Shown piece by piece: positions 36,387-57,553 of a stretch of DNA of 64,000 bases. Position numbers and translations under genes: made by a program. The stretch is taken from the NCBI RefSeq assembly GCF_020905295.1, contig NZ_JAJJMM010000001.1:4898001-4962000 (forward strand), read 5' to 3'. How positions within the stretch are numbered: position 1 is the first letter of the stretch; every line of letters starts with the position of its first letter. Below the pieces are notes generated by a model that was given only the letters and a program-made list of their open reading frames with translations, was not told where the DNA came from and searched no databases. The DNA is from Flavobacterium piscisymbiosum (lineage in GTDB: Bacteria > Bacteroidota > Bacteroidia > Flavobacteriales > Flavobacteriaceae).

Positions 36387-36581
36387 CTTGGGTGCAATCC
36401 ATAAAAATCTTAATCAAACACATAGAAACATAGATTTTATTTGTTTGAAAAAAGAACATTAAAAAGAAACTCGTTTCTATCACATAGTCCCGAAGCTTCG
36501 GGATGTGTTAATGCAAAGTGAAACGCCTTTTTTGATCTTTATAATTCTATGTTCCTATGTGTTAAAATAATTACGCCCAAC
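36387..36581 (+). repeat. MITE-like element copy A
   Basis: Core inverted repeats CACATAGAAACATAG (36419-36433) and CTATGTTCCTATGTG (36547-36561) enclose AAAGAAACTCGTTTCT and TTAATGCAAAGTGAAACGCC. The outer ends CTTGGGTGCAAT (36387-36398) and ATTACGCCCAAC (36570-36581) are near-perfect inverted copies. The 36240-36584 gap contains nothing else recognisable apart from some AT-rich sequence. An internal palindrome CCCGAAGCTTCGGG lies in the middle. Confidence 0.85.
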
Positions 36582-36584
36582 AGC

Positions 36585-39257
36585 TTATTTCTTTATAAAA
36601 CGTTTCACCGTTTTCTGACCGTCTTTTTCAAATACTATCAAATAAATTCCGCGTCGTAAATACGAAACATCTAAACTGTTATTATTGACTTTTCGTCCGG
36701 AAAATACAGTTCCTGTCTGAGAATCTACAATGCTTACATTTCCTCCGCTGACATCCGTTGTAATGTAAAGTGTATTTTCGACCGGACTTGGATATATGTT
36801 CAATGCCGTTTCGACAACTTCCTCCTCAACCACTTGAGCTTGAGCTGATTTAGCTGTTAAACCCGCACCTACTTTTGTAATTTTTATCCAGTTAATGTTC
36901 ATTCCGGTATTCTGAATATAGATTCCAAAATTGTACGTTCCTGCATTTACATTTACCGTCTGAGATACCGTTTGCCAATTTTGCCATCCTCCTGTGTTTG
37001 GAATATCAACATTGCCTAAAACAATAGTTCCTCCGTTTAAATCAGACGATAACCTACCACCCGTTACGCCACTTGCAACACGGTATTCTATTAAATAAGA
37101 ACCAGTCGTTGGAAAATTAATACTGTTATAAGCCAACCAGTCACCCGTTTCGGTATAACCAACATTTGAACCTCCGCCCGTATCTGTAGTTGCTTCAACC
37201 TGAATACCGCTCATGGCAGAATAATCTTCGGCCTGAATTAAAACAGAAGTTTGCGAAGTCGTTGCCGGAACCAATTTCCATTGTCCGCACGTTTGATTGT
37301 TATTGTCCCATTGTTGAACCACTGCGCCAGAAGCTGTACTTGCTCCTGCAACCTCAACGATTCGACCACTATGTCTGGCTACAATTTTATAAAATCCGTC
37401 GCCCGTTGCAACTAATACAAACTGTTGGTTAGTTGTCGCATTGTATGGATATTGCTCTACTTTCGCACCATTGGCTTTATTAAAATTATTTACGTCTAAA
37501 GACTGACCGCTATGATTGGCAATGATTTTGTACAATCCGTCGCCCAAATGTGTGAAGGTAAATTTCTGATTGTTGCCTGAATTCAAAGCGCCCTGATTGA
37601 TGGCAGCACCATTCGATAAATTCGCATTCCAGACATCCATATATAAATTGCTGTTTCTGTTTTGAAGATAAAAGGTCTGATTATTCAAAGTAGTTACTCC
37701 ATTTGCCAGAATTCTAATCGAAGTCACTTTATCATTCCATGTGGTATTCAAACAAGAATTATCAGAATTGATTACCGTTGAAGCTCCTGTAAAATTATCA
37801 TCCTGATACAAAATCGCCTGAAAACCCTGAGCTACTTTAAGTGACGAAATATCATCGTTTAAAACTCCTAAAGTATTCAAACGCGCCAAATTATAATCAC
37901 CAATAGTCAATCCGCCAGAAAACTCGGTGTAATTACAATCTTTATAAACCGTAATAACATCTGTAGTAGCCGGAACCGAAGGTGTTGTACCTGCATATCC
38001 TCCAAACGTAGCAATTACTTTTGTTGGCTGAGGCGAATGAAGCGACGGCGACTGATCAGCCACATCATCATAGGCAAATCCGTAAGCGAGATTATCTACA
38101 CTTATTCCTGGTAAATGCCAGAATTTAGAATAATGATTGGTTGGATTCACCTGATAAAATTTTGATGCATCGTACCAATTTTGCTGTCCCGGATTTGAAG
38201 TTGTAACATTTACCACATGACGATTAATCGCCGCCGTTAATTGCGCCTGAACCACAAGATCAAGATCTCCGTCGACCAATCTTCTGTCCAGAACACCTTT
38301 TCCTTCTAGGGCTTCCTGAGTTGATGGTCTGTTTTGAACTCTTCCCGTTCTACCCACAAAACCTCCTGATTGTCCCACAACTTCAAGTTGTTCGCCAATC
38401 ACTCTTCCTTTGAAAACTCCGGCATCGCCTGCATAAAATATTAAATCTTCATTTTTATATTTGTTCCAAATGGCATCAATATAAGATTTCAGATAATTGG
38501 CCTGAGCTCCTACAGAAGTTCCTCCCGTTCCGTCTGCAAAAGCGGGAGTTTTTGATGGTGCCGTAATTTCGCCGGTTGTATTATTGACACAACCTTGAAA
38601 TTCTGATGGCACATTTGCTTTGAAAGCCGCCACAATATCAGCGTGCTTTTTTAGTTCACCTACTCTTTTCTGATATCCATTGGCACCAAATAACTCCAGT
38701 CCCATTGGGTATTTATACGAATCGACTCTCGAAGGATTTCCAAAGAAACCATATTGATTATTAGTCAATTCGATGATTTCATATAAAATGCCCTGATTTG
38801 GGTCTGTAGCATTCAACGGATTTGGAGATGTATATCCCGAAGGAGCACCATTTGCGCCAAAAAAGTAGAAATACAACTGCTGTCCTTTGGCAATAAAAAC
38901 CCTGCAGCCTGCAATTTGCGGCAGCGTAAAAGTTTTGTTAGGAATTTCGCTTAACTTGGTAAAACAATTGGCATATTTCGAGTTTTGTCCCGGTCCGGTA
39001 TTTCCGCCAATTGTAGGTCCTGTAACGGTATTATAAGAAGCACTCATAGGCAAAACCTGACTTGTTTTGGCATTGACCCAAACGTGATTTCCAGTATTGT
39101 AATCGATACCTACAATGGCGACATACAATTCGTTGTCATTAAATGTTGACGTATTACTTATCGTAAACGGAATTGGGCCCTGCCCGTACATAAAATTGCA
39201 TAGCAATGCCAGAAGCAATGCAGTAAAAAACCTTTTTTGTAATTTAAAATTTCTCAT
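36585..39257 (-). CDS. Secreted GH64 beta-1,3-glucanase with lectin-like modules and T9SS signal
   Basis: The 890-residue protein has a signal peptide (1-25), a GH64 laminaripentaose-producing-type catalytic domain (about 27-420; likely catalytic Glu163 and Asp179, spaced 16 residues as in known members), a beta/gamma-crystallin-like module (about 434-518), a ricin-type lectin domain (about 526-665; KFTFTHLGDGLYKIIANHSG), CBM6 (about 672-795) and a T9SS sorting domain (about 818-890, IYPSPVENT to FIKK). It should cut beta-1,3-glucan such as laminarin or fungal wall glucan. It lies between GH18 and GH16 genes, forming a fungal-wall-directed set. Confidence 0.9.
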   Translation of the reverse strand: MRNFKLQKRFFTALLLALLCNFMYGQGPIPFTISNTSTFNDNELYVAIVGIDYNTGNHVWVNAKTSQVLPMSASYNTVTGPTIGGNTGPGQNSKYANCFTKLSEIPNKTFTLPQIAGCRVFIAKGQQLYFYFFGANGAPSGYTSPNPLNATDPNQGILYEIIELTNNQYGFFGNPSRVDSYKYPMGLELFGANGYQKRVGELKKHADIVAAFKANVPSEFQGCVNNTTGEITAPSKTPAFADGTGGTSVGAQANYLKSYIDAIWNKYKNEDLIFYAGDAGVFKGRVIGEQLEVVGQSGGFVGRTGRVQNRPSTQEALEGKGVLDRRLVDGDLDLVVQAQLTAAINRHVVNVTTSNPGQQNWYDASKFYQVNPTNHYSKFWHLPGISVDNLAYGFAYDDVADQSPSLHSPQPTKVIATFGGYAGTTPSVPATTDVITVYKDCNYTEFSGGLTIGDYNLARLNTLGVLNDDISSLKVAQGFQAILYQDDNFTGASTVINSDNSCLNTTWNDKVTSIRILANGVTTLNNQTFYLQNRNSNLYMDVWNANLSNGAAINQGALNSGNNQKFTFTHLGDGLYKIIANHSGQSLDVNNFNKANGAKVEQYPYNATTNQQFVLVATGDGFYKIVARHSGRIVEVAGASTASGAVVQQWDNNNQTCGQWKLVPATTSQTSVLIQAEDYSAMSGIQVEATTDTGGGSNVGYTETGDWLAYNSINFPTTGSYLIEYRVASGVTGGRLSSDLNGGTIVLGNVDIPNTGGWQNWQTVSQTVNVNAGTYNFGIYIQNTGMNINWIKITKVGAGLTAKSAQAQVVEEEVVETALNIYPSPVENTLYITTDVSGGNVSIVDSQTGTVFSGRKVNNNSLDVSYLRRGIYLIVFEKDGQKTVKRFIKK

Positions 39258-39363
39258 TGTTTAAAATTGTTTGGGTTAATAAACTTGTTTTTAATTCATT
39301 AGTAAGAATGAGAAAATATTAAGCTATAACTCGTCGCATTTAATTCGGAAAATTTATTTAAAA

Positions 39364-39564
39364 ACATAGAAACATAGATTCTATGGATGAAAAAGTATAC
39401 AAAAAAGAAATCCATTTCTTTCGCATAGCTATCTATGTGCTTTTATATAAAGTGAAATGCCTTTTTCGCAAACAAAATCTATGTTTCTATGTGTTAAAAA
39501 GAATCATAACTACGAGTTTATTTATAAAAGTTAGGTGTAACTATTAAGGATCATTACACCCAAC
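39364..39564 (+). repeat. MITE-like element copy B
   Basis: Core ends ACATAGAAACATAG (39364-39377) and CTATGTTTCTATGTG (39479-39493) enclose AAAAAGAAATCCATTTCTTT and AAAGTGAAATGCC. A right outer end ATTACACCCAAC is present at 39553-39564, further out than in copy C; a left outer end is not clear. This fills most of the 39258-39575 gap. Confidence 0.8.
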
Positions 39565-39575
39565 TGGGTTTTAGA

Positions 39576-42500
39576 TTATTGCTTGATCAGTTTTTTAGAC
39601 CAGCTTTTTTGATCAGATTTAAAGTTCAGAATGTAAATTCCTTTTCTAAGTTTACTTACATCTATGACATCTTCTTTAGCATCAGCATTCAGTTTTTTCT
39701 CTACCAGTAATGTTCCTGAATCATCATAAATCGTTACGATTTTGTTGTCTAATTTTTCAGGTATTGCCAATTGAATATAATTGCTTGCCGGATTAGGATA
39801 TACTGCAAATGCTGTAGTTGTTGCATCAGCTTCTTCAGTTACAACCGCAGCTTTCTTAGCTGTAGAGGCAGATCCGTAAGCTTCGATTTCGAATAGAGAA
39901 TATCCGTACGGAGCCAAAGCTTTCGCCGTACATAAAACTCTAATGTATCTTCCGGTTCCGTTCACCGTCAAATCATCTGTTCCTCCGTCGCTGGCCGTTT
40001 GTGTGTTTACAGTTTCATTTTCGGTAAAAACATTATCCGTCGAAATTTGTACTTTGTATTGGGTTGCAAAAGCGGCTTCCCATTTTAATACTACACGATT
40101 GATGTTGTAATTACTTCCTAAATCAACATAAATCCATTCGCTTGCATTGACAAAACTACTCGCCCATCTTGTTCCTGCGTCTCCGTCTGTGGCTTTCGCC
40201 GAAGAATAAGTGGCATTTTCTTCTGAAGAAGCTAAAGTTGTTTTGGCTAAAGCCAAATTGACATTGTTTGTTGGCGGCGTGATATTTCGAACGATAACAT
40301 CGCTGAAAACTCCTGTTGCCAAAGTTCCGTTTGCATGAGAAGTCACTGCCATTCCCACATAAATAGTATTGGCCATAGCAATTGTTCTTGGCGTACCCAA
40401 TTGTGTCCAGGTTGAACCATTATCTGAAGTATAAGACGTAAATACATTTCCTGCTCTTGTTACACGAAGCCATTTTGGAGTCGTTCCTGTAGCTGTCTGA
40501 GCCGTTGTGATTGCTGAAACAGCATCTCTGGATAAAAATTCTACTCCAGCTGCAGCCGTAATATCGGTCATAGCGTGTTTAGAAGTTGGTGTAAGTGTCT
40601 CGCGAAACATTACTCCGGCTTTTGCGTAAGTGTTGGTATTGGTTAACGAATTTACTTTGGCTATAATTTCTCCATCGCCCGTAATAGACTGATTTACAAA
40701 TTGAAATTGATCGCTTGATTCCCAAATATCAGTTCCTGATCCTTTTATGGTAAAAGTTCCGCTGGCATGAGTGGCTTCTCCTGCTGGAGTTACAGCACCT
40801 AAATCTGAACTTATCCAAGGCGCTGGTAAAGTTGCCGGAGGATTTTCTGTTCCCACTAAATTTACCGCTCTGATATTATCAAAATAATACGTATTTCCTG
40901 AATTTGTTCCCGGTTCAAACAAAAACACAAACCGGTTCACTTCAGTATCTAGTGTCGATGCATCCGGAGCGCTCGCATAAGTAAACGTAATGGTATGCCA
41001 GGTATTGGTTTGTTTTACAACACCCTGATAAATACTATGTCTCCCCACAGGATAATTAGAAGGAACCGAAGCACTACTTTCTGCCTGCCATGAAATTACA
41101 GATCCAACCGGCGCAGAGGTATACACATCCATAGCAAATTTCTTCGTTCCGCTTTTGAAATCTCCAATATTATTTAAAGCGGTATTGAATGAAAAGTTAT
41201 CATATAATTCAGTCGATTTTCTAACATATTTTCCAACGTTTGTAGAGGTATTGATTCCGCTTGCACTTGGATTTGGCGTGTTTGCCGTATAAGTTCCAAT
41301 TGCATCTCTAAACGTGATATTATGAACCGTTTGGTAATCTTCGTAAACTACTCCGGGCGTAAAAGTATCCGGTAATTTAGTAGAACCAATTCTGATATTA
41401 TCAAAATAATAAGTATCGTTTGTAAAAGAACCTGAATTGGCTAATATCACCATTTGATTGACCGCCAGATTAGATGTTCCCGGATCCGGACTTGAATTAT
41501 AGTAGAAAGTCAGCGTTTCCCATTGATTCTGTTTGGTCGTGATGGCAACATAATTACTGTTTCTTCCTGTAGGGAAATTAGCCGGAAGCGACGTTGCACT
41601 ATTCTCTAAATTCAGACTAACCACTGTACCAATTGGCGCTGTAGTATAAACATCTATCATGATTTTATTGGTCTGACTTTTTAATAAACCTGCATCTTCG
41701 ATATTGCCTTGCGTATTAAAGAAAAGTACATCATATTGTTCGGTAATATTTCGAACATACTTTGCCACATTCGCAGACGAGTTAACCGCATTTGCTCCGG
41801 GATTTGCCACAACAGAATATACTCCGGTTGTAGTTCCTTTAATTATCTTATTGATACCATCATAATTCTGAAGAACATCTGTAGCAATAATTGGTTTTTC
41901 GGGCGCTGCTCTGGTAAGCAAATTATCAAAATAATAAGTCGTGCCGGTATTCGAATTCGATTCAAAAAGAAAAACTACATTATTAATAGATAACGCGCTT
42001 GTATTGGCGTCGATTACTTTTTCGAATTCAAATTCAATAGTTTCCCATTTGTTTTGAACTGTAGTTGTGGCTTTGTAACCGCTATGTCTTCCTGAAGGGA
42101 AATTTGTTGCTGTGGTTACTAAACTATTTTCGAGTTGCATCGAGATTTTAGTTCCAACTGGCGCCGAGGTATAGATATCAAAAGAAAGTTTTTTTCTGCC
42201 ATATACATAATCATTCGCATTGCTGATGGTTACATTTTTGATATTCATAACATCATACAATTCAGAGGCGTTACGAACATATTTCCCCACCAAAGCCGAA
42301 GTATTGATTCCTGTAGCCGATGGATTTGCCACCGCTTCTGTCAAAACTCCTGTTTTAAGTCCGTAGACGATATTTCTATTCGATTGAAAATCTTCGTAGA
42401 TTCTTTCTACCGGTAAAGGCACTTCTGTTACAACGGCCAATTTATAAGTATTACTGGCACATCCTGACACTGTAGTCGCTACAGAAACATCTCCGCCTGT

Positions 42501-43538
42501 AGTTCCCCAATTTACAGTAATTGTATTGGTACCTTGTCCTGAAGTAATTGATGCTCCAGCCGGAACGGTCCAATTATAAGCGGCTCCGGGAATCGCATTG
42601 ATCGAATACGTTTTGCCTGTTTCGTTATGGTATACTTTTGCATCGCCCAAAACGCCATACGTAAAACTACCACTGTAAACACGAACATAATCTACTTGCA
42701 GCTTTGCAGGAAAGTCAGCCGGAATTGGTTCTACACCTGCTCCGTTTACACTTGTATAAGGCGTTCCGCCACTACCAACAGCCAGATTTAAAATAATATA
42801 AAACTGTTGGTCATTAAAAGGCCATCCGCCATTTACAGTCGTTTGTGGCGTGGCAGTATGAAATAAATTGCCATCTATAAACCATTTAATGATATTTGGT
42901 CCCCATTCTACCGCATAAACGTGAAATTCTGAAGATAAATCCGTTGGTGAAGAATAACTTCTTCCAGTATAATGATAGCCACCTGCGTCATAATGAAGCG
43001 TTCCGTCTACAGATTTTGGGTTTCTGTGCTTGGCTTCCATGATATCAATTTCACCTGTAAAAGGCCAGTTTGAAGTTCCTGCAGGTAACATCCAGAAAGC
43101 AGGCCATGCGCCCATTCCGTTAGATAATTTCATACGGGCTTCGATTCTTCCGTATTTGATGGCATATTTACCTTCTGTGGTGAGTTTTGCAGAAGAATAC
43201 GGTTGTGACGGAAAGGCAGCATTGGGTTCGTATTTTGCCTGAATGTTCAAATAGCTGTTTGTTCCTTCTTTGACAATTGTCGCCTGAGCAGGATCGTAAC
43301 GCTGTGCTTCGGCATTTCCAAATCCGCAAAGCGATGGACAGCCGTTTCCGGAAATACTTTGCCATTTGGTAGTGTCTACGGTTGTCCCGTTAAATTCATC
43401 CGACCAAATTAAGGTGTTGCATTGTGAGTAAACTTTTAAGAGTGGAAATAATGCCAGAACGAGTAACATTAAACACCTTTTTAGTACATTGTAATTGCTT
43501 TTCGGTGGTCGGCCGAAAAAAGAGTCTTTTTGTTTCAT
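39576..43538 (-). CDS. Secreted multidomain GH16 laminarinase with triple repeat and T9SS signal
   Basis: The 1320-residue protein has a signal peptide (about 1-38), a GH16 beta-1,3-glucanase domain (about 42-290) with catalytic GEIDIME (Glu163, Asp165, Glu168), a PKD/Ig-like module (about 298-372), three homologous modules of about 170 residues (starting near 378, 553 and 733; each has DFQ/NYDG/DYQ, KYVRN-E-YD and FPSGRHSGY-like motifs), a DUF1349-like lamin-type domain (about 910-1095), an F5/8 type C (discoidin) domain (about 1100-1230) and a T9SS sorting domain to KLIKQ. The modules likely bind polysaccharide. It should cleave laminarin-type glucans. Confidence 0.93.
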   Translation of the reverse strand: MKQKDSFFGRPPKSNYNVLKRCLMLLVLALFPLLKVYSQCNTLIWSDEFNGTTVDTTKWQSISGNGCPSLCGFGNAEAQRYDPAQATIVKEGTNSYLNIQAKYEPNAAFPSQPYSSAKLTTEGKYAIKYGRIEARMKLSNGMGAWPAFWMLPAGTSNWPFTGEIDIMEAKHRNPKSVDGTLHYDAGGYHYTGRSYSSPTDLSSEFHVYAVEWGPNIIKWFIDGNLFHTATPQTTVNGGWPFNDQQFYIILNLAVGSGGTPYTSVNGAGVEPIPADFPAKLQVDYVRVYSGSFTYGVLGDAKVYHNETGKTYSINAIPGAAYNWTVPAGASITSGQGTNTITVNWGTTGGDVSVATTVSGCASNTYKLAVVTEVPLPVERIYEDFQSNRNIVYGLKTGVLTEAVANPSATGINTSALVGKYVRNASELYDVMNIKNVTISNANDYVYGRKKLSFDIYTSAPVGTKISMQLENSLVTTATNFPSGRHSGYKATTTVQNKWETIEFEFEKVIDANTSALSINNVVFLFESNSNTGTTYYFDNLLTRAAPEKPIIATDVLQNYDGINKIIKGTTTGVYSVVANPGANAVNSSANVAKYVRNITEQYDVLFFNTQGNIEDAGLLKSQTNKIMIDVYTTAPIGTVVSLNLENSATSLPANFPTGRNSNYVAITTKQNQWETLTFYYNSSPDPGTSNLAVNQMVILANSGSFTNDTYYFDNIRIGSTKLPDTFTPGVVYEDYQTVHNITFRDAIGTYTANTPNPSASGINTSTNVGKYVRKSTELYDNFSFNTALNNIGDFKSGTKKFAMDVYTSAPVGSVISWQAESSASVPSNYPVGRHSIYQGVVKQTNTWHTITFTYASAPDASTLDTEVNRFVFLFEPGTNSGNTYYFDNIRAVNLVGTENPPATLPAPWISSDLGAVTPAGEATHASGTFTIKGSGTDIWESSDQFQFVNQSITGDGEIIAKVNSLTNTNTYAKAGVMFRETLTPTSKHAMTDITAAAGVEFLSRDAVSAITTAQTATGTTPKWLRVTRAGNVFTSYTSDNGSTWTQLGTPRTIAMANTIYVGMAVTSHANGTLATGVFSDVIVRNITPPTNNVNLALAKTTLASSEENATYSSAKATDGDAGTRWASSFVNASEWIYVDLGSNYNINRVVLKWEAAFATQYKVQISTDNVFTENETVNTQTASDGGTDDLTVNGTGRYIRVLCTAKALAPYGYSLFEIEAYGSASTAKKAAVVTEEADATTTAFAVYPNPASNYIQLAIPEKLDNKIVTIYDDSGTLLVEKKLNADAKEDVIDVSKLRKGIYILNFKSDQKSWSKKLIKQ

Positions 43539-44127
43539 TTGTTTTTAGGTTATTTGTTAGTAAAGATTATTAGCACAATAAATACCTGCTTATAAAAACA
43601 GATTGCTATTGTAATAATAATGAGACAATATTAACAAATAAATCAGGCAAGACTTACATTTTACAATACGGTTTGACTACGGTGTTTGTAAAAAAATGTA
43701 ATAATTAGCCCGCAAAAAGCGTAAATCTACTTAGGATTTTACTGATAGTAAAAAATTCGTTATGTGTTGGTTATAAACCGATAGAAGATGGATTTTAATT
43801 GTAGGAATGTGAAAGAAAATGCAGTTTGCGTTTAGTTTGTCATTTCGACGGAGGAGAAATCTTCGCAAGAAACTCCGCAACAAATGTAGCCAATCTTTGT
43901 AGAATTTCTTGCGGAGATCCCTCGTTCCTCGGGATGACAAGATTGCGGTTATGATCGCGATTAATTTAGAACTTTTAGAATTAATACGTTATAAAATAAA
44001 ACATTTGCGCACATCTGCATCAATCTTTTTAAAATCTGCGTGAAAAATTTTAGCCACAGATTAAGGGATAAAAAAAATTAAAAAAATCTGCTCGATCTGC
44101 CAAATCTGCGAGAAAAAATAAACCCAT
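43539..44127. repeat. Repeat-filled gap upstream of GH16
   Basis: No gene is seen in these 589 bases. At 43837-43941 a degenerate inverted repeat runs from TTTGTCATTTCGACGGAGGAG to CCTCGGGATGACAAG, related to the perfect repeat at 47345. At about 44005-44115 lies a second family with TTTAAAATCTGCGTGAAA, CCACAGATTAAGG and AATCTGC words, also seen at 55594-55701. A 69-codon minus-strand frame across 43731-43940 is repeat sequence. The first 150 bases (43539-43690) are AT-rich and could hold the GH16 promoter, but I saw no clear box. Confidence 0.75.
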
Positions 44128-47055: not shown

Positions 47056-47344
47056 TTTTGTTTCGGTCTGTAGGTTAGTTCGTAGCTTTTTAAGAGCTAC
47101 AGTCTCAAAAATCCCCCTTTGGGAAAAGGCATTTTTAAGCAAAAAAAGACATTCTTATTACTACTCTTAAAATTATAATTTCACAATTAAAAGCATCAAA
47201 AAAAATGAATCTCTATAATCAAATATATAAAAATTTATTTTAATGTAACAAATTACATTTTAATTAAAGAATTTGGTAATGAAGAAATTAGAGAATATTC
47301 TAATTAGATAGTGAGAAAATTTAAAAAATTACGTAACCATGATC

Positions 47345-47446
47345 TTGTCATTTCGAGGAACGAGAAATCCTCGCGAGAAGCTCCATAAAGATTGGATTTT
47401 CGTTGCGGAGTTACTTGCGAGGATTTCTCGTTCCTCGAAATGACAA
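47345..47446. repeat. Perfect 30-bp inverted repeat
   Basis: Arms 47345-47374 and 47417-47446 are perfect reverse complements (core GTCATTTCGAGGAACGAG) separated by 42 bases that contain GAAGCTCC and GCGGAGTT. Degenerate relatives are at 43837-43941. It lies in the 47056-47589 gap upstream of the regulator gene and past the end of the HAD gene; I see no gene in that gap. Confidence 0.95.
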
Positions 47447-47470
47447 AACTGGCTCAATTGCTTGTTGTAA

Positions 47471-48228: not shown

Positions 48229-48253
48229 ATTTTTTAATTTACATTTTTAACCA

Positions 48254-48436
48254 GTTGGGTGTAATTATTTTTAAAACATAGAAACATAGAATTATTGAAA
48301 TCAAAAAAAGACGTTTCACTTGCATTAAAAAACATAGCTATGTGTTAGAAACGAGTTTCTTTTGATTTACTTTTTTCAAAATCATAAAATCTATGTTTCT
48401 ATGTGTTTAATTAAATTTTTATCCATTACACCCAAC
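48254..48436 (-). repeat. MITE-like element copy C with perfect 12-bp outer inverted repeats
   Basis: Outer ends GTTGGGTGTAAT (48254-48265) and ATTACACCCAAC (48425-48436) are perfect inverted copies. Inner ends ACATAGAAACATAG (48276-48289) and CTATGTTTCTATGTG (48391-48405) enclose, in reversed orientation relative to copies A, B, D and E, GACGTTTCACTTGCATTAA and GAAACGAGTTTCTTTT. This 183-bp copy best defines the element limits. Confidence 0.88.
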
Positions 48437-48508
48437 GGTTACATTTTTAATTATTCGGCTTGACCGAAAATGTAAATTACAAAATTATTCCCGAAAGCAA
48501 GACAAATT

Positions 48509-48985: not shown

Positions 48986-49078
48986 GGGGTTTTAAATTTA
49001 TCATCTAAAGATAGTATTTAATTATTACGCTAATTACTTAATTTACTCACTTTGCTTTGGGCAATATTTTTTATTAAA

Positions 49079-49227
49079 CACATAGAAACATAGATTTTAT
49101 CTTTAGAAAAAGACAATCAAAAGAAACCAGTTTCTCATACATAGTCCAGATCCCGAAACTTCGGGACGGGATTATTAATGAAAGTAAAATGCCTTTTTTG
49201 AGTTCAACTATCCTATGTACCTATGTG
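49079..49227 (+). repeat. MITE-like element copy D
   Basis: Ends CACATAGAAACATAG (49079-49093) and CTATGTACCTATGTG (49213-49227) enclose AAAGAAACCAGTTTCT, an inserted CCCGAAACTTCGGG palindrome and AAAGTAAAATGCC. Outer ends are degenerate (TTTGGGCAAT at the left). The rest of the 48986-49375 gap is AT-rich and probably holds the promoter of the gene at 49376. Confidence 0.82.
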
Positions 49228-49375
49228 TTTAAATAGTTCCAACCAATAGATCAAGTTAATTCTATTATCCAAATTCTGCACATATTTACCCCAATTCTGT
49301 ATTTTTAATCAATTATCTATTTGTAATTTTATCATTCTTAAAATGTCACTTTACAAACATTAAAAAATAACCACT

Positions 49376-50545: not shown

Positions 50546-50547
50546 TT

Positions 50548-50615
50548 TCTCGCAAAGGCGCTAAGTTACTAAGATTCTAAGACTAAAAACTTTACGACTT
50601 AGCGCCTTTGCGAGA
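50548..50615. repeat. Perfect 18-bp inverted repeat between convergent genes
   Basis: TCTCGCAAAGGCGCTAAG (50548-50565) and its perfect reverse complement (50598-50615) flank 32 bases. It sits directly after the DUF4861 stop and before the end of the convergent LacI gene, and may end transcription in both directions. Confidence 0.9.
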
Positions 50616-50642
50616 TTAATTAAATAACTTTACAGAAAAAAA

Positions 50643-51665
50643 TCACTTAGGTGCAGGAAAATAATTCTCTTTCAGAATAATTTCCAACGGAATATAATGT
50701 GTATTCTCTACAATTTCCTGCAGGACCAGTTTTTTATACAAGTGATTAATTCCCATATACCCCTGCTCTTCCGGTCTTTGGTTGATTAGAAAGTCGATTA
50801 CTCCTTTATTGAGGTATTTGATATTATCTTTTAATAAATCGTAACCAATAATTCTCACGCCTTTTATATGGTTTTGTTCTAAAAATCTTGCGACAATATA
50901 AGCTCTCGAATTGGGTACAAAAACACTATTGATGCCGGAAAACATTTCCAGATTCAATTGATCAATTCCGGAATCTTTGATGGTAATTTCAGAAAATTTA
51001 AAATTCCTGAGTTCATTATGATCTTTAAAAAACGAATAAAAACCATTGATGCGCTGCAAATAAACCGATGTACTTTCGATCTCTCTGGTGATTTTAAAAA
51101 TCAGAATTTGTCTTTCATTTTTTACCGCAAAACTGATTAGTCTTCCGGCAAGATAACCACTCTGAAAAGCATCTTGTCCAACATAAGCATGTTCGTCATT
51201 ATTAGAAATATTCGAATCGATCATGACAACGGGAATATTTTTCTTTTCATATTCACTTAGAAAACGTACCGATTCTTCATAAAAAATAGGAGCAAATAAG
51301 AGTCCATCGCAATCAAATTCCAGCACTTTTTTAACGGCTTCTTTAAACGAAGCTGCATTAAAATCATAAAAGAAATAATCCAGTACAATACCGAATTTAC
51401 TAAACTCAATAGCTGCTTTTTCTATTCCTGTAATTTGGCTTTTCCAATATTCCAGATTTTCATATTGAGGTAAAAATACTGCAAAATGAAACTTTTTATT
51501 CAAGGCCAGATTACTCGCCAGAATATTACGTTTGTAGCCATATTGCTCAATAATTGCATTTACTTTATCTACATTTTCCTGAGCAACCTGCCCACGATTA
51601 TGTATAATTCTATCAACAGTTCCAGGGGAAACGTTGGCTAATTCGGCAATTTTTTTTATCGTTAT
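50643..51665 (-). CDS. LacI-family transcriptional regulator, start codon non-canonical
   Basis: This regulator is about 340 residues. The N-terminal HTH is clear in translation (ITIKKIAELANVSPGTVDRI, then HNRGQVAQENV) and is followed by a periplasmic-binding-like sensor domain (KKFHFAVFLPQYENLEYW, VVMIDSNISNNDEHAYVGQD, GIRIIG-like VRIIGYDLL). No ATG, GTG or TTG is in frame upstream of the HTH before a stop at 51702-51704; in-frame codons there include ATA and ATC, and I use ATA at 51665 as a provisional start. A TTG at 51501-51503 would omit the HTH. It is divergent from yhcH and faces an operator-like palindrome at 51775. Confidence 0.85.
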   Translation of the reverse strand: MTIKKIAELANVSPGTVDRIIHNRGQVAQENVDKVNAIIEQYGYKRNILASNLALNKKFHFAVFLPQYENLEYWKSQITGIEKAAIEFSKFGIVLDYFFYDFNAASFKEAVKKVLEFDCDGLLFAPIFYEESVRFLSEYEKKNIPVVMIDSNISNNDEHAYVGQDAFQSGYLAGRLISFAVKNERQILIFKITREIESTSVYLQRINGFYSFFKDHNELRNFKFSEITIKDSGIDQLNLEMFSGINSVFVPNSRAYIVARFLEQNHIKGVRIIGYDLLKDNIKYLNKGVIDFLINQRPEEQGYMGINHLYKKLVLQEIVENTHYIPLEIILKENYFPAPK

Positions 51666-51736
51666 GATATTGATGAGTTTTAAGTTAAATGATGCTTTAG
51701 ATCATTCGAAATTATTATTTTTTTATTGAATATAAG

Positions 51737-51766
51737 TTGTTTTACTTAACTTTTTATATACATTTG
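51737..51766 (+). promoter_or_regulatory. Bacteroidota-type promoter for the hexuronate operon
   Basis: A -33-like TTG (51737-51739) is followed after exactly 19 bases by TACATTTG (51759-51766), a full match to the -7 box TAnnTTTG. Transcription would start near 51773 and run into yhcH at 52036, leaving a leader of about 260 bases. The rest of 51684-52035 is AT-rich with no gene. Confidence 0.72.
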
Positions 51767-51774
51767 TAAAAGCC

Positions 51775-51788
51775 CGTGTGCGTACACG
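51775..51788. promoter_or_regulatory. Candidate LacI-type operator
   Basis: CGTGTGCGTACACG matches its reverse complement at 12 of 14 positions and is centred on CG, as usual for LacI-family sites. It begins 8 bases after the -7 box and overlaps the expected transcription start, so a bound repressor would block the promoter. Confidence 0.6.
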
Positions 51789-52035
51789 CAAATATACAAA
51801 TGTGTTTGAAAAAAACATTATATTAGAGAAAAATATTTGGAGTTGATTATCGCTCTGACAGGATTCATAAAAATTTTCATGACAAAAGACAGTGTAAATA
51901 ACTAATATTGATATATAAACATTTAACATTTATAAACCAGTATTTTAAGCAAAACAATATAAAGTAATTATTTAACTAAAAAGTAGCATTAATAATTATT
52001 TAAAGTTCAAATAGAAAACATAAAAACCAAATAAA

Positions 52036-52485
52036 ATGATTGTAGATTCATTACAAAACGCTGCAAAATATTTCAGCCTTCATCCTAAATTCAAAGAAGC
52101 ATTTGATTACGTAAATCAAAATGACATTAGCAAACTCGAAGAAGGTGCATTTGAAATTGCCGAAGGATTAAAAGTTATCGTAATTGTTGGCGAAGGCGCA
52201 ACCAAAGAAGAAAGTATAAAAGGTTTTGAATGTCATGACCAAAATATCGACATCCAGATTTCGATAAAAGGTCCTGAAACTTTTGCATGGAAACCAAGAG
52301 AAAAATGCGTGAGTCCAAACGGGGAATACAGCGACGAAAGAGATGTTCGTTTCTTTCACGACAAACCGGATATGTTTTTTGAATTGCAGGAAAAACAATT
52401 TGCGATTTTATTTCCCACAGATGTTCACGCGGCTATGATTGGCGAAGGAACAATTAAAAAAATCGTCATTAAAGTTAAAATTTAA
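52036..52485 (+). CDS. YhcH/YjgK/YiaL-family protein
   Basis: The 149-residue cupin-like cytoplasmic protein (DUF386) begins MIVDSLQNAAKYFSLHP, typical of the family, and has the conserved segments HDQNIDIQISIKGPE and LFPTDVHAAMIGEG with metal-binding His residues. Relatives act in sugar-acid or sialic acid metabolism, perhaps as sugar anomerases or isomerases. It starts the hexuronate operon, 5 bases upstream of eda, and is controlled by the promoter at 51737. Confidence 0.9.
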   Translation: MIVDSLQNAAKYFSLHPKFKEAFDYVNQNDISKLEEGAFEIAEGLKVIVIVGEGATKEESIKGFECHDQNIDIQISIKGPETFAWKPREKCVSPNGEYSDERDVRFFHDKPDMFFELQEKQFAILFPTDVHAAMIGEGTIKKIVIKVKI

Positions 52486-52490
52486 AACTG

Positions 52491-53153
52491 ATGAGCACCA
52501 TTCAAAAAACCATCGATGTTATTGCTGAGCAAGTTATTCTTCCGTTGTATTTTACAACCGATGAAGCTATTAGTGTCGAAATTTTAAGAACGCTTTACAA
52601 AGCAGGAATCAGAGCTGTAGAATACACCAACCGAGGTCCTGAAGCGCTATCGAATTTCAAAAAAATGGTTGCGGTTCGAAATGCCGAATTACCTGAAATG
52701 TTATTAGGTATCGGAACAATTAAAAACCTCCAACAAGCCAAAGACTTCAACGATGCAAAAGCCGACTTTTTTATTAGTCCGGGTTTTGTTCCTGAAGTGG
52801 CTGATTTCTTAAAAGATCAAGAAGTTTTATACGCTCCGGGTTGTATGACGCCAACAGAAATTATAGCGGCTGAAAATGCCGGAATAAAACTCGTAAAGCT
52901 TTTCCCCGGAAACATTTTAGGCACAGAATTTTTAAGCAGCATAAAAGATGTTTTCCCATCATTGGTTTTCATGACTACCGGCGGTGTAGAACCTACTCAT
53001 GCCAGCATTGAAAGCTGGTTTTCGGCCGGAGCCTCTGCGGTTGGATTAGGAAGCAAACTCATCAGCAAAAAACGTATAGAAGAGCAGGATTACGATGTAA
53101 TTGAAAACGAAACTAAAAAAATGCTGGAGATAGTAGCAACAATAAGAAGATAA
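52491..53153 (+). CDS. eda: KDPG aldolase (2-keto-3-deoxy-6-phosphogluconate aldolase)
   Basis: The 220-residue class I aldolase splits KDPG to pyruvate and glyceraldehyde 3-phosphate, and often also acts on 4-hydroxy-2-oxoglutarate. Family signs are YTNRGPEALSNF, LLGIGTIKN, FFISPGFVPEV, and the Schiff-base lysine in AGIKLVKLFPGN (near residue 140), followed by MTTGGVEP. It is the last step of the hexuronate route encoded by this operon. A repeat element separates it from the next gene. Confidence 0.95.
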   Translation: MSTIQKTIDVIAEQVILPLYFTTDEAISVEILRTLYKAGIRAVEYTNRGPEALSNFKKMVAVRNAELPEMLLGIGTIKNLQQAKDFNDAKADFFISPGFVPEVADFLKDQEVLYAPGCMTPTEIIAAENAGIKLVKLFPGNILGTEFLSSIKDVFPSLVFMTTGGVEPTHASIESWFSAGASAVGLGSKLISKKRIEEQDYDVIENETKKMLEIVATIRR

Positions 53154-53175
53154 CTAATACCTAAAAAATATTTAA

Positions 53176-53302
53176 CACATAGAAACATAACTTTTAAAAC
53201 TGAAGAATGTTTTTTAAGAAAACTAGTTTTTTCATATAGTCTATGATTATTAATGCAAAGTGAAACGACTTCAAACGTTCCAAAAAACTATGTTTCTATG
53301 TG
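53176..53302 (+). repeat. MITE-like element copy E
   Basis: Ends CACATAGAAACATA (53176-53189) and CTATGTTTCTATGTG (53288-53302) enclose AAGAAAACTAGTTTTTTC and TTAATGCAAAGTGAAACGAC. The outer right end ATTACCT is degenerate. It lies inside the hexuronate operon between eda and the SDR gene. A GTG at its end could extend the SDR reading frame, but that would be repeat sequence. Confidence 0.85.
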
Positions 53303-53335
53303 TTTAAAACATTACCTATAAATTTAAAATTTAAT

Positions 53336-54148
53336 ATGGATTCAATATTTAATCTAAAAGGAAAAATTGCATTAATTACCGGAGGTGCCGGAGTTTTGGG
53401 AAGCAACTTTGCAAATGTTTTGGCCCAACAAGGCGTTATTGTTGGAATCGTTTCTCAATCGATTGAAAAGGCTAATAAAGCTGTACAAAACATAGAAAAC
53501 AGCGGCGGAAGAGCTTTTGCTGTTCAGGCCAATGTTTTAAACAAAGAAGAACTAGAAAAAGCCAGAGATTTTATTGTAGAAAAATACGGTCGTCTTGACA
53601 TTTTAATTAATGCTGCAGGCGGAAATATGCCTGGAGCAACTATTAGTCCGGATCAGGCGATATTTGATATGAAAATCGATGATTTACAAAAAGTAGTCGA
53701 TCTTAATATTATTGGTACAATGTTGCCATCGCAGGTATTTTCGGAACTTTTTGCGAAACAAAAATCAGGAAATATCATTAATATATCATCGGCATCGGCA
53801 CAAAGACCTTTAACGAGAGTTGTGGGATATTCGGCTTCAAAAGCGGCAATTGATAATTTTACGCAATGGATGGCAGTTGAGTTAGCTCAAAAATATGGTG
53901 AAGGAATTCGTGTAAATGCGATTTCTCCGGGATTTTTTATAGGAGAACAAAACAAGGCTTTATTACTTACTCCTGAAGGAAAACTAACACCAAGAGGCGA
54001 AAAAATTATCGAACATACGCCAATGGGAAGATTTGGAACTCCGGAAGATATCGACGGAGCGCTTTTATTTTTATGCAGCGATATGTCAAAATTTGTAACA
54101 GGAACGATCTTAAAAGTCGATGGCGGATTTGCTGCGACGAGCATTTAA
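53336..54148 (+). CDS. SDR-family D-mannonate oxidoreductase (fructuronate reductase-like)
   Basis: The 270-residue SDR has the cofactor motif ITGGAGVLGSNFA, the NAAGG segment, catalytic Ser in NIISS, and YxxxK as YSASK (Tyr and Lys near 163 and 167). It ends with VDGG. I use the ATG at 53336 (MDSIFNLKGKIALITGG) rather than an earlier GTG in the repeat. Its position directly before uxuA fits the SDR-type UxuB that interconverts fructuronate and mannonate, as in Bacillus YjmF. That reaction is inferred from context. Confidence 0.88.
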   Translation: MDSIFNLKGKIALITGGAGVLGSNFANVLAQQGVIVGIVSQSIEKANKAVQNIENSGGRAFAVQANVLNKEELEKARDFIVEKYGRLDILINAAGGNMPGATISPDQAIFDMKIDDLQKVVDLNIIGTMLPSQVFSELFAKQKSGNIINISSASAQRPLTRVVGYSASKAAIDNFTQWMAVELAQKYGEGIRVNAISPGFFIGEQNKALLLTPEGKLTPRGEKIIEHTPMGRFGTPEDIDGALLFLCSDMSKFVTGTILKVDGGFAATSI

Positions 54149-54162
54149 AATAATTAAAAAAG

Positions 54163-54260
54163 AACACCAATTTCACAAATTAGCACAGATTGGTTTGTGA
54201 AAATTAATTTTAAAAATTAATCGAAAGATAAAATTAGTGTCAATTAGTGAAATTCGTGTT
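54163..54260. repeat. Inverted repeat between SDR and uxuA
   Basis: AACACCAATTTCACAAATTAGCAC at the left and its reverse complement with four mismatches at the right (54237-54260) enclose AT-rich sequence. It would form a hairpin in the operon mRNA and might modulate expression of uxuA. Confidence 0.8.
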
Positions 54261-54317
54261 TAAAAATGAATACATAAAAGGCTTTAAAAAACAATCATCA
54301 TCAATAAATATAAAAAA

Positions 54318-55502
54318 ATGGAACAAACGTTAAGATGGTTCGGACCAAACGATCCCGTTTCTTTACAAGATATTAAACAGACCGGAGCTACCGGAATTGT
54401 GACCGCATTACACCATATTCCGAATGGGCAAGTTTGGGATATTGAAGAAATTATCAAGCGAAAAGTTGAAATTGAACACGAAAATGGTGACCCTAAAAAA
54501 GGCGCTTCGGGTTTAATTTGGTCAGTTGTTGAGAGTATTCCGGTGCATGAAGACATTAAAAAACAGACCGGAAATTATCTTCAATACATTGAAAATTATA
54601 AAGAAAGCATTAGAAATCTGGCTTTATGCGGAATAAAATGCATTTGCTACAATTTTATGCCAGTTTTAGACTGGTCGAGAACGGATCTGGCTTATGAAAC
54701 TGCCGACGGATCTAAAGCGTTGCGCTTTGATATTAATGCTTTTGCTGCTTTTGAATTGTATATTCTGAAAAGACCCGGAGCAGAAAATGAATATTCGGCA
54801 GCGCAAATCGAAAAAGCAAAAAGTTATTTTGAAGCCATGACTGCTGCTGATAAAGTAAAGTTACAGCAAAATATTCTGGCAGGACTTCCGGGTGCTGAAG
54901 AAGCATATTCTGTAGAAGATTTTCTGATTACGTTAAGTGGATACAATCATATTGACAAAAAGGCCTTGAAGGAGAATTTGTTTTTCTTTTTAAAAGAAAT
55001 TATTCCGGTTGCTGAAAGTAAAGGCGTATTGATGGCGATTCATCCTGACGATCCTCCCTACCCTATTTTAGGTTTGCCAAGAGTTGTAAGTACTGAGGAA
55101 GATTTGATCGAATTGATGAATGCTGCTCCTTCAAAATCAAACGGATTTACGATGTGCACGGGTTCATACGGCGTGAGAGCTGATAATGATTTACCGGGAA
55201 TTGTAAGACGTCACGGTGATAAAATGAATTTTATTCACCTAAGAAGCACGGAACGTGATGCTGAAGGAAGTTTTTACGAAGCGAATCATCTTGAAGGCGA
55301 TGTTGATATGTACGAAGTCGTAAAAGCGATTATTGAAGTTGAAAAAAGAAATAACAGTCAATTGCCAATGCGTCCCGATCACGGACACCAAATGTTGGAC
55401 GATTTGAATAAAAAGACGAATCCCGGATATTCGGCGATTGGGCGTTTGAGAGGTCTGGCTGAATTGAGAGGACTTGAAATGGGAATTAAGAAGTCGCTTT
55501 AA
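54318..55502 (+). CDS. uxuA: Mannonate dehydratase
   Basis: The 394-residue enzyme dehydrates D-mannonate to 2-keto-3-deoxygluconate. It has the family start [32 protein letters not shown], the metal-binding [18 protein letters not shown] and [13 protein letters not shown], and the final [10 protein letters not shown]. Length is full. It works between the SDR oxidoreductase and the (unseen) KDG kinase, with eda upstream completing the branch. Confidence 0.97.
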
Positions 55503-55525
55503 AAGTTATCGTAAAGCTGCTTTTC

Positions 55526-55736
55526 TTGCCACGAAGTCGCTAAGACGCGAAGTTTTATTTAAAGTCAACTTTATAAAATGGATTGAGAGAATCTTTTACG
55601 CAGATTTAAAAGGATTTAAGCGGATTTACGCAGATATTATCTACAGATTTTTATTAATTAAATCTGCACGATTTGCTTAAATCTTTTAAAATCTGCGTGA
55701 AACAAAAAAATTGCGTCTTTGCGCCTTGGTGGCAAA
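55526..55736. repeat. Nested inverted repeats between uxuA and the beta-helix gene
   Basis: Outer arms TTGCCACGAAGTCGCTAAGA and GCGTCTTTGCGCCTTGGTGG (55713-55736) are imperfect inverted copies. Inner arms (55594-55620 and 55661-55701; TACGCAGATTTAAAAGGATT facing AAATCTTTTAAAATCTGCG) also pair. The inner family recurs at 44005-44115. No gene is in this gap; the 68-codon frame here is repeat sequence. Confidence 0.85.
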
Positions 55737-55763
55737 CCACTAACTAACCAAATAACCACAACC

Positions 55764-57404
55764 ATGAATACCCAAACCATCCTCATTTGTTGCAGCCTTT
55801 TTGTAAATAGTGTAGTCATGGCGCAGCAAACGCCCAAAATACTTACGGATTCGAAAGCCAACTATTTACCTGATTTTAGTTATGCCGGTTATCATTTCGG
55901 CGAAAGCCAAATTCCGGAAGTTCAGGGAAAAATCATTAATGCTACAGATTATGGTGTAAAAGCGAATGACGCTCTAGATGATTCTAAAGCTTTACTAAAA
56001 GCTGTAAAAGCTGCAAATGCTATTGAGGGAAATGTGATTCTGCAATTGCCTGCTGGACGCATTATTCTGAGCGAAATTGTATATATCGAAAGGAGCAACT
56101 TTGTAATTCGTGGCGCGGGTTCTGGTGAAAATGGAACTGAAATTTATTGCCCGAGACCGATGATGTACCTCAAAGATTCGGAATCATTGGCCGAACTTCG
56201 TGAGTATCTAACTACACTCGATAAAAGACAACGCGAACCGGAAAATAATGTCGATTTGCCTTTCTCGCAATATGCCTGGTCAGGTGGATTTATCTGGACG
56301 CAAATTCCGGGTGAACGTGTAAAATCGTATTTGGATAAATACGAACCTACTCCAAATCCTTTAGCTAAAGTAAGTTCCGGAAATATGGGTGAACATATCA
56401 TCAATGTTTCGGATGCAAAAGGTTTAAAAGTGGGCGATATTGTCGAATTGCAATTGTTTAATAAAGATGGCGAAAATGGCGAAATCATCAAAGATTTATA
56501 CAAAGGTGCCAATGTAAAACCAGGTTCTCATCATTGGAAATTTCCGAAACTTCCTATCGTACGACAGCAAGTTGAAATTACCAAAATATCAAACTCAAAA
56601 ATTACAATCAAAACGCCTTTGACAATTGCTATAAAACCCAGTTATCAGGCGCAATTGGTCGAATGGAAACATTTAGAAGAAGTCGGGATCGAGCATCTTC
56701 GTTTTACTTTTCCTGATATTCCAAGAGTTGCGCATCATGTTGAACCCGGAAACAATGCGATATTTTTAACACGTATTTTTAATAGTTGGGTAAAAGATGT
56801 TACGATTACGAATGCTGACAGCGGAATTTTAGGCGAGGAAATCTCGAACGTTACCATTCAGAATATTGTTACCGATGGTCCTCATATGTCGCATTATACG
56901 GTGACTTTGGGCGGGGTTCATAATGTATTGGTCAGGAATCTTAAAATTTATAATAAAGCCGTTCATCCGTTAAGTTTCAACACTTTTGCTACTAAAAACG
57001 TGTATCAGGATTGCGAGATTTTTGCCGATGCTCTTTTAGATCAGCATTCGGGAGCGAATCATCAAAACTTATTCGATCATATTACCGTACATATAACACC
57101 GGATAAAAACAACAGTTATTACTTGTTTGGCGGTGGCGGCGCGGATTACTGGAAACCTTCGCATGGGCCATTTAGTACTTTTTGGAATCTGAATGTTCTG
57201 GTCGAGAAACCAGCTGAAATCACAAAACCAGTTTTACTTTACGGCATGAAAGATGGGGCTTTTGCAAGAATTGTTGGTGTGAATGGAAACGCCAAATTCG
57301 AAGTAAAATATGAACCTGATGCTTATATTGAATTTTTGAATACGCCGATGGACAAAGTTCCTTCTCTTTATAATTATCAATTAAAAAGGAGATTAAAGAA
57401 ATAA
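55764..57404 (+). CDS. Exported right-handed beta-helix protein (pectate-lyase-superfamily type)
   Basis: The ATG at 55764 (MNTQTILICCSLFVNS) gives 546 residues with a signal peptide to VMAQQ; earlier in-frame codons lie in repeat sequence. The start of the mature part (IINATDYGVKANDALDDSKA, LLKAVKAANA, LPAGRIILSEIVYI) is the Pectate_lyase_3 pattern (PF12708). The C-terminal half (VSLGG-like VTLGGVHNVLVRNLKIYN, DQHSGANHQNLFDHITVHI, FGGGGADYWKPSHG) is a beta-helix that I associate with DUF4955. It could be a polysaccharide lyase or hydrolase acting on a uronate polymer. The exact family and activity are not certain. Confidence 0.8.
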   Translation: MNTQTILICCSLFVNSVVMAQQTPKILTDSKANYLPDFSYAGYHFGESQIPEVQGKIINATDYGVKANDALDDSKALLKAVKAANAIEGNVILQLPAGRIILSEIVYIERSNFVIRGAGSGENGTEIYCPRPMMYLKDSESLAELREYLTTLDKRQREPENNVDLPFSQYAWSGGFIWTQIPGERVKSYLDKYEPTPNPLAKVSSGNMGEHIINVSDAKGLKVGDIVELQLFNKDGENGEIIKDLYKGANVKPGSHHWKFPKLPIVRQQVEITKISNSKITIKTPLTIAIKPSYQAQLVEWKHLEEVGIEHLRFTFPDIPRVAHHVEPGNNAIFLTRIFNSWVKDVTITNADSGILGEEISNVTIQNIVTDGPHMSHYTVTLGGVHNVLVRNLKIYNKAVHPLSFNTFATKNVYQDCEIFADALLDQHSGANHQNLFDHITVHITPDKNNSYYLFGGGGADYWKPSHGPFSTFWNLNVLVEKPAEITKPVLLYGMKDGAFARIVGVNGNAKFEVKYEPDAYIEFLNTPMDKVPSLYNYQLKRRLKK

Positions 57405-57412
57405 TATTTAAA

Positions 57413-57553
57413 CACATAGAAACATAGCTTTTTGGAACGTAAAAAAGGCGTTTTGCTTTACATTAAAAAACATAGCACTTAAGGTTTAGCTATGTGTAAA
57501 AACTAGTTTTTTGAATCACCTTATTTGACAAAGAAAATCTATGTTTCTATGTG
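57413..57553 (-). repeat. MITE-like element copy F
   Basis: Ends CACATAGAAACATAG (57413-57427) and CTATGTTTCTATGTG (57539-57553) enclose, in reversed orientation, AAAAAGGCGTTTTGCTTTAC and AAAACTAGTTTTTT. It lies between the beta-helix gene and the hybrid regulator gene. Confidence 0.85.

What the first reader, a model, noticed from the sequence alone, without database searches (positions are those of the whole stretch)
36387..57553. Six-copy MITE-like palindromic element family confined to one 21-kb stretch
Six intergenic elements (A 36387-36581, B 39364-39564, C 48254-48436, D 49079-49227, E 53176-53302, F 57413-57553) share the ends CACATAGAAACATAG/CTATGTTTCTATGTG and an internal body with GAAAC..GTTTC and TTAATGCAAAGTGAAACGCC. 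A, B, D and E lie in one orientation, C and F in the other. Copy C has perfect 12-bp outer inverted repeats (GTTGGGTGTAAT/ATTACACCCAAC), and A has them nearly perfect. None is visible in the first 36 kb. No coding capacity exists, so a trans-acting transposase is implied, or the elements have a role in mRNA ends. This is the best candidate for an undescribed element in the window.
Basis: partly seen in the sequence, partly recalled or inferred. Interest (0 to 1): 0.75.

Follow-up and report, generated by a model that had tools for sequence, protein, structure and literature searches.

The report
Mobile hairpin DNA using borrowed transposase
The six repeats are copies of a small gene-less jumping DNA that relied on an enzyme of a known transposon family (IS982); the enzyme was not found in this genome, yet the inner hairpin of the old copies stays strikingly unchanged, which suggests it still does something.

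Summary
The cluster of six is still denser than chance. Full copies end in a 16-bp repeat, ACCCGTTGGGTGTAAT, many are flanked by target duplications, and relatives have empty sites (C empty in 10 of 10). About 1-kb insertion sequences elsewhere have the same ends and an IS982-family transposase; one of eight distinct copies has an exact 8-bp duplication. No such gene was found in this genome. So: a new member of a known kind. The surprise is the inner 15-bp repeats: about 3% per site off consensus while outer ends have decayed in most copies, and slower change than their surroundings in insertions shared between species. That points to constraint after insertion; the function is unknown.

The parts
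36374..36382 (.). A: left target duplication TATTCTTTA
   Evidence: sequence; single copy TATTTCTTTA in G006
36383..36585 (+). Element A, full length, outer terminal repeats at 36383-36398 and 36570-36585 (4 and 3 mismatches of 16)
36419..36561 (+). A: inner inverted repeats and body
36586..36595 (.). A: right target duplication TATTTCTTTA, beside the stop codon of the GH64 glucanase ORF (36585-39257, -)
39329..39517 (+). Element B with decayed outer ends (5 and 8 mismatches of 16); inner part 39363-39493; shared with relatives G302 and G126
48240..48249 (.). C: left target duplication TACATTTTTA
48250..48439 (-). Element C, the best preserved copy of the window; outer repeats with 1 mismatch each, inner part 48275-48405
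48440..48449 (.). C: right target duplication TACATTTTTA
   Evidence: site empty in 10 of 10 relatives
49079..49227 (+). Element D, inner part; outer ends decayed; no element in 6 of 6 relatives
53176..53302 (+). Element E, inner part; no recognisable outer ends
57413..57553 (-). Element F, inner part; no recognisable outer ends; a copy is also present at this place in G137

Best explanation
These are copies of a non-autonomous MITE (full copies about 180-230 bp, mostly 190-210), formerly mobilised in trans by an IS982-family DDE transposase. Shown: 16-bp ends identical to those of about 1-kb IS982-family insertion sequences in other genomes, duplication of an AT-rich target, and presence or absence between species. 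Inferred: the transposase bound the shared ends and inserted the element by staggered cuts (8-10-bp core; longer matches may be chance in AT-rich sites). No transposase of this group was found in this genome, so the copies are probably immobile relics here. Their inner part (15-bp inverted repeats around a hairpin body) is kept far better than the outer ends, which suggests constraint after insertion.
For: Target duplications: 14 of 20 rows classed as body-bearing pass a TIR-anchored test (16 of 24 if grouped by sequence) against 1.1% of 3660 cross-flank controls; in own-genome and relative copies 13 of 19 share a word of 7 or more against 9.6%. Single-copy empty sites at A and C. IS copies with the same 16-bp ends (L164, L192, L113 and others); transposase matches NF033520 IS982 with 255.6 bits, cutoff 130. 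The intact IS of G002 carries an exact 8-bp duplication TAATCATA. Further bodies share the ends and carry duplications: 6 of 12, 3 of 4 and 3 of 3 rows in three other groups. IS982 family in PMC7335449 (abstract and passages): 845-1282 bp, 57 of 69 begin AC, direct repeats 2-10 bp when present. Inner constraint.
Against: Only 1 of 8 distinct complete IS copies shows an exact duplication; L192 has 7 of 8. Several members in the table passages I saw of PMC7335449 also have none. Element-rich G000, G004, G006, G008 and G015 gave no transposase match at E<=1e-10, so mobilisation is inferred from other genomes. Beyond about 20 bp of end I saw no similarity between body and IS (ends compared by eye). 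Apparent duplication lengths vary (mostly 7-12). 32 of 47 copies here lack recognisable outer ends by an ungapped scan (ends with indels, such as L004, count as lost), so for them the origin rests on the shared body and a faint residue of the ends.
Confidence: 0.88

Rival explanations
1. The inner unit (TTTAAACACATAGAAACATAG...CTATGTTTCTATGTGTTTAAA) is itself the mobile element, moved by an unidentified enzyme; copies with IS982 ends are a captured sub-form.
For: 32 of 47 copies here have no recognisable outer ends but near-perfect inner repeats. In these the conserved block stops at TTTAA just outside the inner repeats.
Against: 29 inner-only copies show little duplication signal over control (10 with a word of 7 or more against 7.8 expected). 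Their flanks keep a faint residue of the outer ends (best match to ATTACACCCAAC 5.27 mismatches against 5.81, sd 0.10, in shuffled flanks). The two precise junctions resolved in the window (A, C) have the outer ends. Slow change in insertions shared by species is not explained by mobility.
Confidence: 0.12
2. The inner palindrome is a structured RNA or transcript-end element (bidirectional terminator or 3'-end protector) selected at gene ends.
For: Strong fold of C (z -7.2); hairpin P2 has changes on both sides in 5 of 6 pairs. 0 of 47 copies lie inside ORFs; 27 of 37 between co-directional genes lie nearer the upstream stop than the next start.
Against: No strand bias (18 of 37). Terminator-like sites at chance (16 against 14.4). 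No Rfam match. The sequence of the outer stem is conserved, not only its pairing. Position near gene ends is also expected of tolerated insertions.
Confidence: 0.2
3. The inner repeats are sites for a DNA-binding protein (the CACATAG unit occurs in both arms and again in the central hairpin), kept by selection.
For: Sequence-level conservation of the 15-bp arms (about 3% off consensus), repetition of CACATAG inside the element, no strand bias.
Against: No protein identified or searched for; covariation in P2 suggests that pairing matters as well.
Confidence: 0.3

Closest known systems
MITECca01 of Cardinium cOegib (IS982/ISCca4-derived MITE, about 240 bp; PMC9769881, passages seen)
   Same: Short non-autonomous element with the ends of an IS982-family IS, no transposase gene, many copies.
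   Different: There the paper reports intact parental IS copies in the same genome and a short subterminal stretch from the parent. Here the parental gene was not found in the genome, I saw no similarity to the IS beyond about 20 bp of end, and copies are divergent (median body identity 62%).
IS982 family insertion sequences (PMC7335449, abstract and passages seen; ISFba2 of a Flavobacteria bacterium is in its table)
   Same: About 1 kb, single transposase, ends beginning AC, variable direct repeats, for the related IS found here.
   Different: The window elements have no transposase gene. ISFba2 itself was not compared in sequence.
Porphyromonas gingivalis MITEs such as BrickBuilt and MITE464 (PMC4596501, passages seen)
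   Same: Several unrelated bodies share ends with IS elements of the same genome.
   Different: IS5-family ends there and internal tandem repeats; the ends in its table differ from those here (by eye).
REP/BIME palindromes linked to RAYT (recalled, no call)
   Same: Intergenic, near gene ends, palindromic, many copies.
   Different: Recalled as 20-40-bp units without target duplications; here there are terminal repeats and target duplications.

Membership tests
MITE (non-autonomous DDE-type element) | Short, multi-copy, no transposase gene | tested here: met
   47 copies with both inner repeats, inner parts 111-170 bp; full copies A 203 and C 190 bp; no ORF of 90 aa or more lies within an element of the window
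MITE (non-autonomous DDE-type element) | Terminal inverted repeats | tested here: met
   16-bp ends perfect in L034; C 1 mismatch per side. Not recognisable on either side in 32 of 47 copies of this genome by an ungapped scan
MITE (non-autonomous DDE-type element) | Target site duplications | tested here: met
   14 of 20 rows against 1.1% control; A and C in the window. 29 inner-only copies: little or no signal
MITE (non-autonomous DDE-type element) | Empty sites in relatives | tested here: met
   No element in C 10 of 10, D 6 of 6, A 16 of 17 relatives; precise single target at A and C
IS982-derived or IS982-mobilised | Same ends as an IS982-family IS | tested here: met
   L164, L192, L113, L210 carry ACCCGTTGGGTGTAAT at both ends; transposase of L164 and L192 NF033520
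IS982-derived or IS982-mobilised | Duplication of 2-10 bp as in the family (PMC7335449) | tested here: met
   8 bp in the IS of G002; 8 bp at L034, 9-10 bp at A and C; some apparent 11-12-bp matches
IS982-derived or IS982-mobilised | Ends match the family consensus 5'-AC(N)6T(N)5TT | tested here: inconclusive
   Begins AC; position 9 is G, not T (compared by eye with the passage)
IS982-derived or IS982-mobilised | Functional transposase in the same genome | tested here: not met
   0 matches at E<=1e-10 in G000
IS982-derived or IS982-mobilised | Transposition in trans demonstrated | not testable with these tools
   Needs a transposition assay
Rfam-described RNA | Match to a curated RNA family | tested here: not met
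   No match in the window nor at E<=1 around C
REP/BIME with RAYT | Insertion without target duplication (definition recalled) | tested here: not met
   Duplications present at copies with outer ends
REP/BIME with RAYT | Linked RAYT transposase gene (definition recalled) | not tested
   RAYT genes were not searched for

The most novel reading that the evidence does not exclude
The inner hairpin of an abandoned MITE has been taken over by the host. After the transposase and the terminal repeats were lost, the 15-bp inner arms and a covarying hairpin are kept by selection at dozens of intergenic sites, so that a dispersed set of near-identical protein-binding or transcript-end sites now works across the chromosomes of a clade of Flavobacterium.
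Probability: 0.4. Interest if true: 0.65.

Novelty: new member of a known kind. Interest (0 to 1): 0.42.

Why it matters
It gives a parent group (IS982-type), boundaries, target duplications and empty sites to an abundant repeat family of Flavobacterium for which I found no description in the searches made. It also offers a testable case of a bacterial MITE whose inner part is conserved after the mobile machinery is gone, with orthologous copies in several species to work with.

Tried and rejected
Considered and dropped: confinement to the window stretch; B's distant ATTACACCCAAC as its end; Rfam RNA; plasmid or phage carriage (no match with the L034 element in either collection; the exact inner pair pattern 0 in viral contigs; the outer end alone occurs exactly in 7 viral contigs, not followed up); a transposase between these ends in the own genome (14 outer-end matches at up to 2 mismatches; in the five stray loci no facing second end within 1.5 kb; protein search 0); inner unit mobile on its own with duplications. 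A first, unanchored duplication test over wide flanks gave a weaker signal even for full copies (16 of 34 with 7 or more against 10.7 expected), because AT-rich flanks share words by chance; the anchored test was made later, and both are reported. The text search for the end sequences found only the 11-letter TTGGGTGTAAT, in 13 papers whose listed titles are unrelated (listing only).

One search used crude ORF calls without gene annotation. One search is an ungapped scan. One search pairs were found through elements recognisable in both species, so strongly decayed partners would be missed; one search was made to lessen that bias. The sums contain two ambiguous double pairings (L002, L266), which I dropped only for the count 21 of 22. 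In one search the variant motif ATTATGCGCAAC was read by eye from the same flanks, so I quote only the family motif.

Full report
What is there. The six elements exist as described. The end motif CACATAGAAACATAG (up to 2 mismatches) occurs 12 times in the window, as six inverted pairs, against 0.1 expected, and the six align over a common asymmetric body with C and F reversed. They are not confined to this stretch: a BLAST of copy C gave 75 matching pieces in the own genome, with 40 of 205 candidates scored; the end motif occurs 145 times against 13 for the reversed control. After fetching places from these lists I count 47 distinct copies with both inner repeats, besides truncated ones; E was not among the fetched loci and makes 48. 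Six in 21.2 kb was reached in 0 of 20,000 uniform simulations of 48 positions, so the local cluster is real but unexplained. In a sample of 60 genomes 15 had matches, the own one included: 15 of the 37 of its genus, some with a single weak match, and 0 of the 23 of other genera. That the genus is Flavobacterium is inferred from named contigs and from G075 (below). Among named contigs found through the outer ends, body-bearing copies occur for example in F. laiguense, F. araucananum, F. foetidum, F. nitrogenifigens, F. chilense and in Paenimyroides viscosum.

Boundaries and target duplications. Full copies extend beyond the inner repeats (24-36 bp in A and C) to a 16-bp terminal repeat ACCCGTTGGGTGTAAT...ATTACACCCAACGGGT. 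In 19 copies with both ends recognisable, 13 share a word of 7 bases or more between the flanks at the ends, against 9.6% of cross-copy controls. In the named contigs 14 of 20 rows classed as body-bearing pass an anchored test, against 1.1% of 3660 controls; grouped by sequence it is 16 of 24 rows. L034, with perfect ends, has TAACCATA on both sides. Lengths found are mostly 7-12 bp; since the elements begin A and end T next to TA-rich targets, the core is probably 8-10 bp (inference). A wider, unanchored test gave 16 of 34 full copies against 10.7 expected, and for 29 inner-only copies 10 against 7.8.

Empty sites. The window region is colinear with many species. At C, 10 of 10 relatives with both anchors lack the element; G137, for example, reads ...TTTACATTTTTAATTATTCGG... 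once, where the window has TTTACATTTTTA, the element, then TACATTTTTAATTATTCGG. At A, 16 of 17 relatives lack it; G006 reads AAAACTATTTCTTTATG once, against TATTCTTTA and TATTTCTTTA on the two sides of A. A landed at the stop codon of a GH64 glucanase ORF and left a stop in place. D is absent in 6 of 6. B is seen with both ends in G302 and G126, with one end and rearranged in G144 and G075, and not in the other 13 of 17. E is present in G008 of 9 relatives (G302 has one weak end match), F in G137 of 9. B, D, E and F give presence or absence, not resolved junctions.

The transposase. Several hold about 1-kb units with the same ends: L164 999 bp with a 312-aa ORF, L192 1037 bp with 316 aa, and L113, L169, L194, L195 with broken or missing long ORFs. 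The protein matches the IS982 family model with 255.6 bits (cutoff 130) and Pfam DDE domains. An intact copy in G002 (999 bp) is flanked by TAATCATA on both sides. Against this, only 1 of 8 distinct complete IS copies shows an exact duplication, L192 having 7 of 8 (L209, L211 and L212 look like the same insertions as L192, L113 and L195). In PMC7335449 (abstract and passages) IS982 members are 845-1282 bp, 57 of 69 begin AC, and direct repeats are 2-10 bp when present. A search of 60 genomes with the protein found matches in 13, none in G000 nor in the element-rich G004, G006, G008 and G015. Three further groups of short elements (12, 4 and 3 rows) share the ends with other bodies, and 6, 3 and 3 of them carry duplications. 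So the ends are a shared ticket used by several passengers. One row, L184 (445 bp, Paenimyroides viscosum), groups with the IS and looks like an internally deleted IS.

The unexpected part: the inner core. In this genome 32 of 47 copies have no recognisable outer end on either side (more than 5 of 16 mismatches, ungapped), 5 have both, yet the inner repeats of the 32 differ from the consensus at 2.9% of positions and 15 of 32 are perfect over 30 bases. Per-site departure is 0.03 in the inner repeats, 0.27 in the body and 0.41 in the 20 bases outside, while body identity between copies has a median of 62%. Starting from 78 exact single inner repeats, the partner is either nearly intact (63 with 0-3 mismatches, 40 perfect) or at background (15 with 5-8), with nothing at 4; the outer end on the same side trails off into background. 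In insertions shared by two species the inner repeats differ by 0.054, 0.028 and 0.027, the body by 0.12-0.16 and the 35 bases outside by 0.18-0.23 (G000-G302, G000-G126, G302-G126, sums over 13, 6 and 5 pairings); dropping two ambiguous double pairings, 21 of 22 have inner repeats more alike than the outside, the exception being L029-L317. These pairs are not all independent. A faint residue of the outer ends in the flanks of the end-less copies (5.27 against 5.81 mismatches, sd 0.10) says that at least some once had them. The simplest reading is constraint on the inner core after insertion; I rate selection for a host function at about 0.4, because detection through the inner repeat leaves some bias.

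What the core may do. Folded as RNA, copy C is very stable (z -7.2). In an alignment of 72 copies a small hairpin (GAAAC..GTTTC) has changes on both sides in 5 of 6 pairs. The whole structure lies above the shuffle means on all five measures (covariation score 0.108 against 0.063, 0 of 500 shuffles as high; pairs with change on both sides 10 against 6.7, reached by 15 of 500), and above the slid versions on four of five; for pairs with change on both sides, slides of +1 and +3 reach 11 and 10. The outer stem of the core is conserved in sequence rather than by compensation (4 of 21 pairs with change on both sides). 0 of 47 copies lie inside ORFs; 37 lie between co-directional genes, 6 between convergent and 4 between divergent ones (crude ORFs). 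Of the 37, 27 are nearer the upstream stop (p 0.008) and 18 point with the genes. No strand bias speaks against a strand-specific RNA; terminator-like sites are at chance level, two of them inside B and E. Sequence-specific protein binding, or a strand-symmetric role at transcript ends, remain open.

Known or new. An IS982-derived MITE is already described from Cardinium (PMC9769881, passages), and several MITE bodies sharing ends with IS elements are known from Porphyromonas (PMC4596501, passages). A review of prokaryotic MITEs has no hit for IS982 or Flavobacter in its text (PMC10969869, term search). The present family was not found in print in the searches made, which cover only open-licence papers. 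Repeat databases such as ISfinder were not searched. I file it as a new member of a known kind.

Noticed in passing
window 47345-47446 and 43837-43940: A second palindromic repeat family (TTGTCATTTCGA...). The stretch around 47342-47447 has many matches, up to 94%, in G006, G015 and G008.
   Followed up: no
window 10021-10521: GATGTTCCGATGGAACAT-type palindromes, three of them spaced 80 bp.
   Followed up: no
window 29856-30004, 32172-32237, 50548-50615, 55594-55702: Further palindromes of CGCAAAG and ACGCAGATT type; a CGCAAAG type sits at site F in relatives that lack F, as if different repeats take turns in one slot.
   Followed up: partly
L148 2907-3883 (Flavobacterium sp. ENC) and L163 901-1328 (F. 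circumlabens): The outer end repeats in tandem every 150-175 bp, same orientation, with another body: arrays of end-bearing units.
   Followed up: no
L184 2368-2812 (Paenimyroides viscosum): 445-bp unit that groups with the IS982-type IS: probably an internally deleted IS, a possible step towards a MITE.
   Followed up: no
L256 1587-2117 (own genome 3835487-3836016): Half copies of the element alternate with an ACGCAGATT palindrome in a tandem array with a period of about 193 bp.
   Followed up: no
L022 1266-1580 (own genome about 5336482-5336788): A copy interrupted by another palindromic repeat (AAACACGAATTTCAC...GTGAAATTCGTGTTT): nested insertion.
   Followed up: no
central loops of copies A and D of the window, and others: In several copies the central hairpin carries a small palindrome such as CCCGAAGCTTCGGG or CCCGATAGCTATCGGG.
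   Followed up: no
window 53300-54148: The mechanical GTG start lies in element E's right repeat; relatives show a conserved ATGGATTCAATATTTAA-like start a few tens of bases downstream.
   Followed up: partly
L202-L208: Seven viral contigs hold the exact 16-bp outer end; not examined beyond an end scan.
   Followed up: no
   Followed up: no
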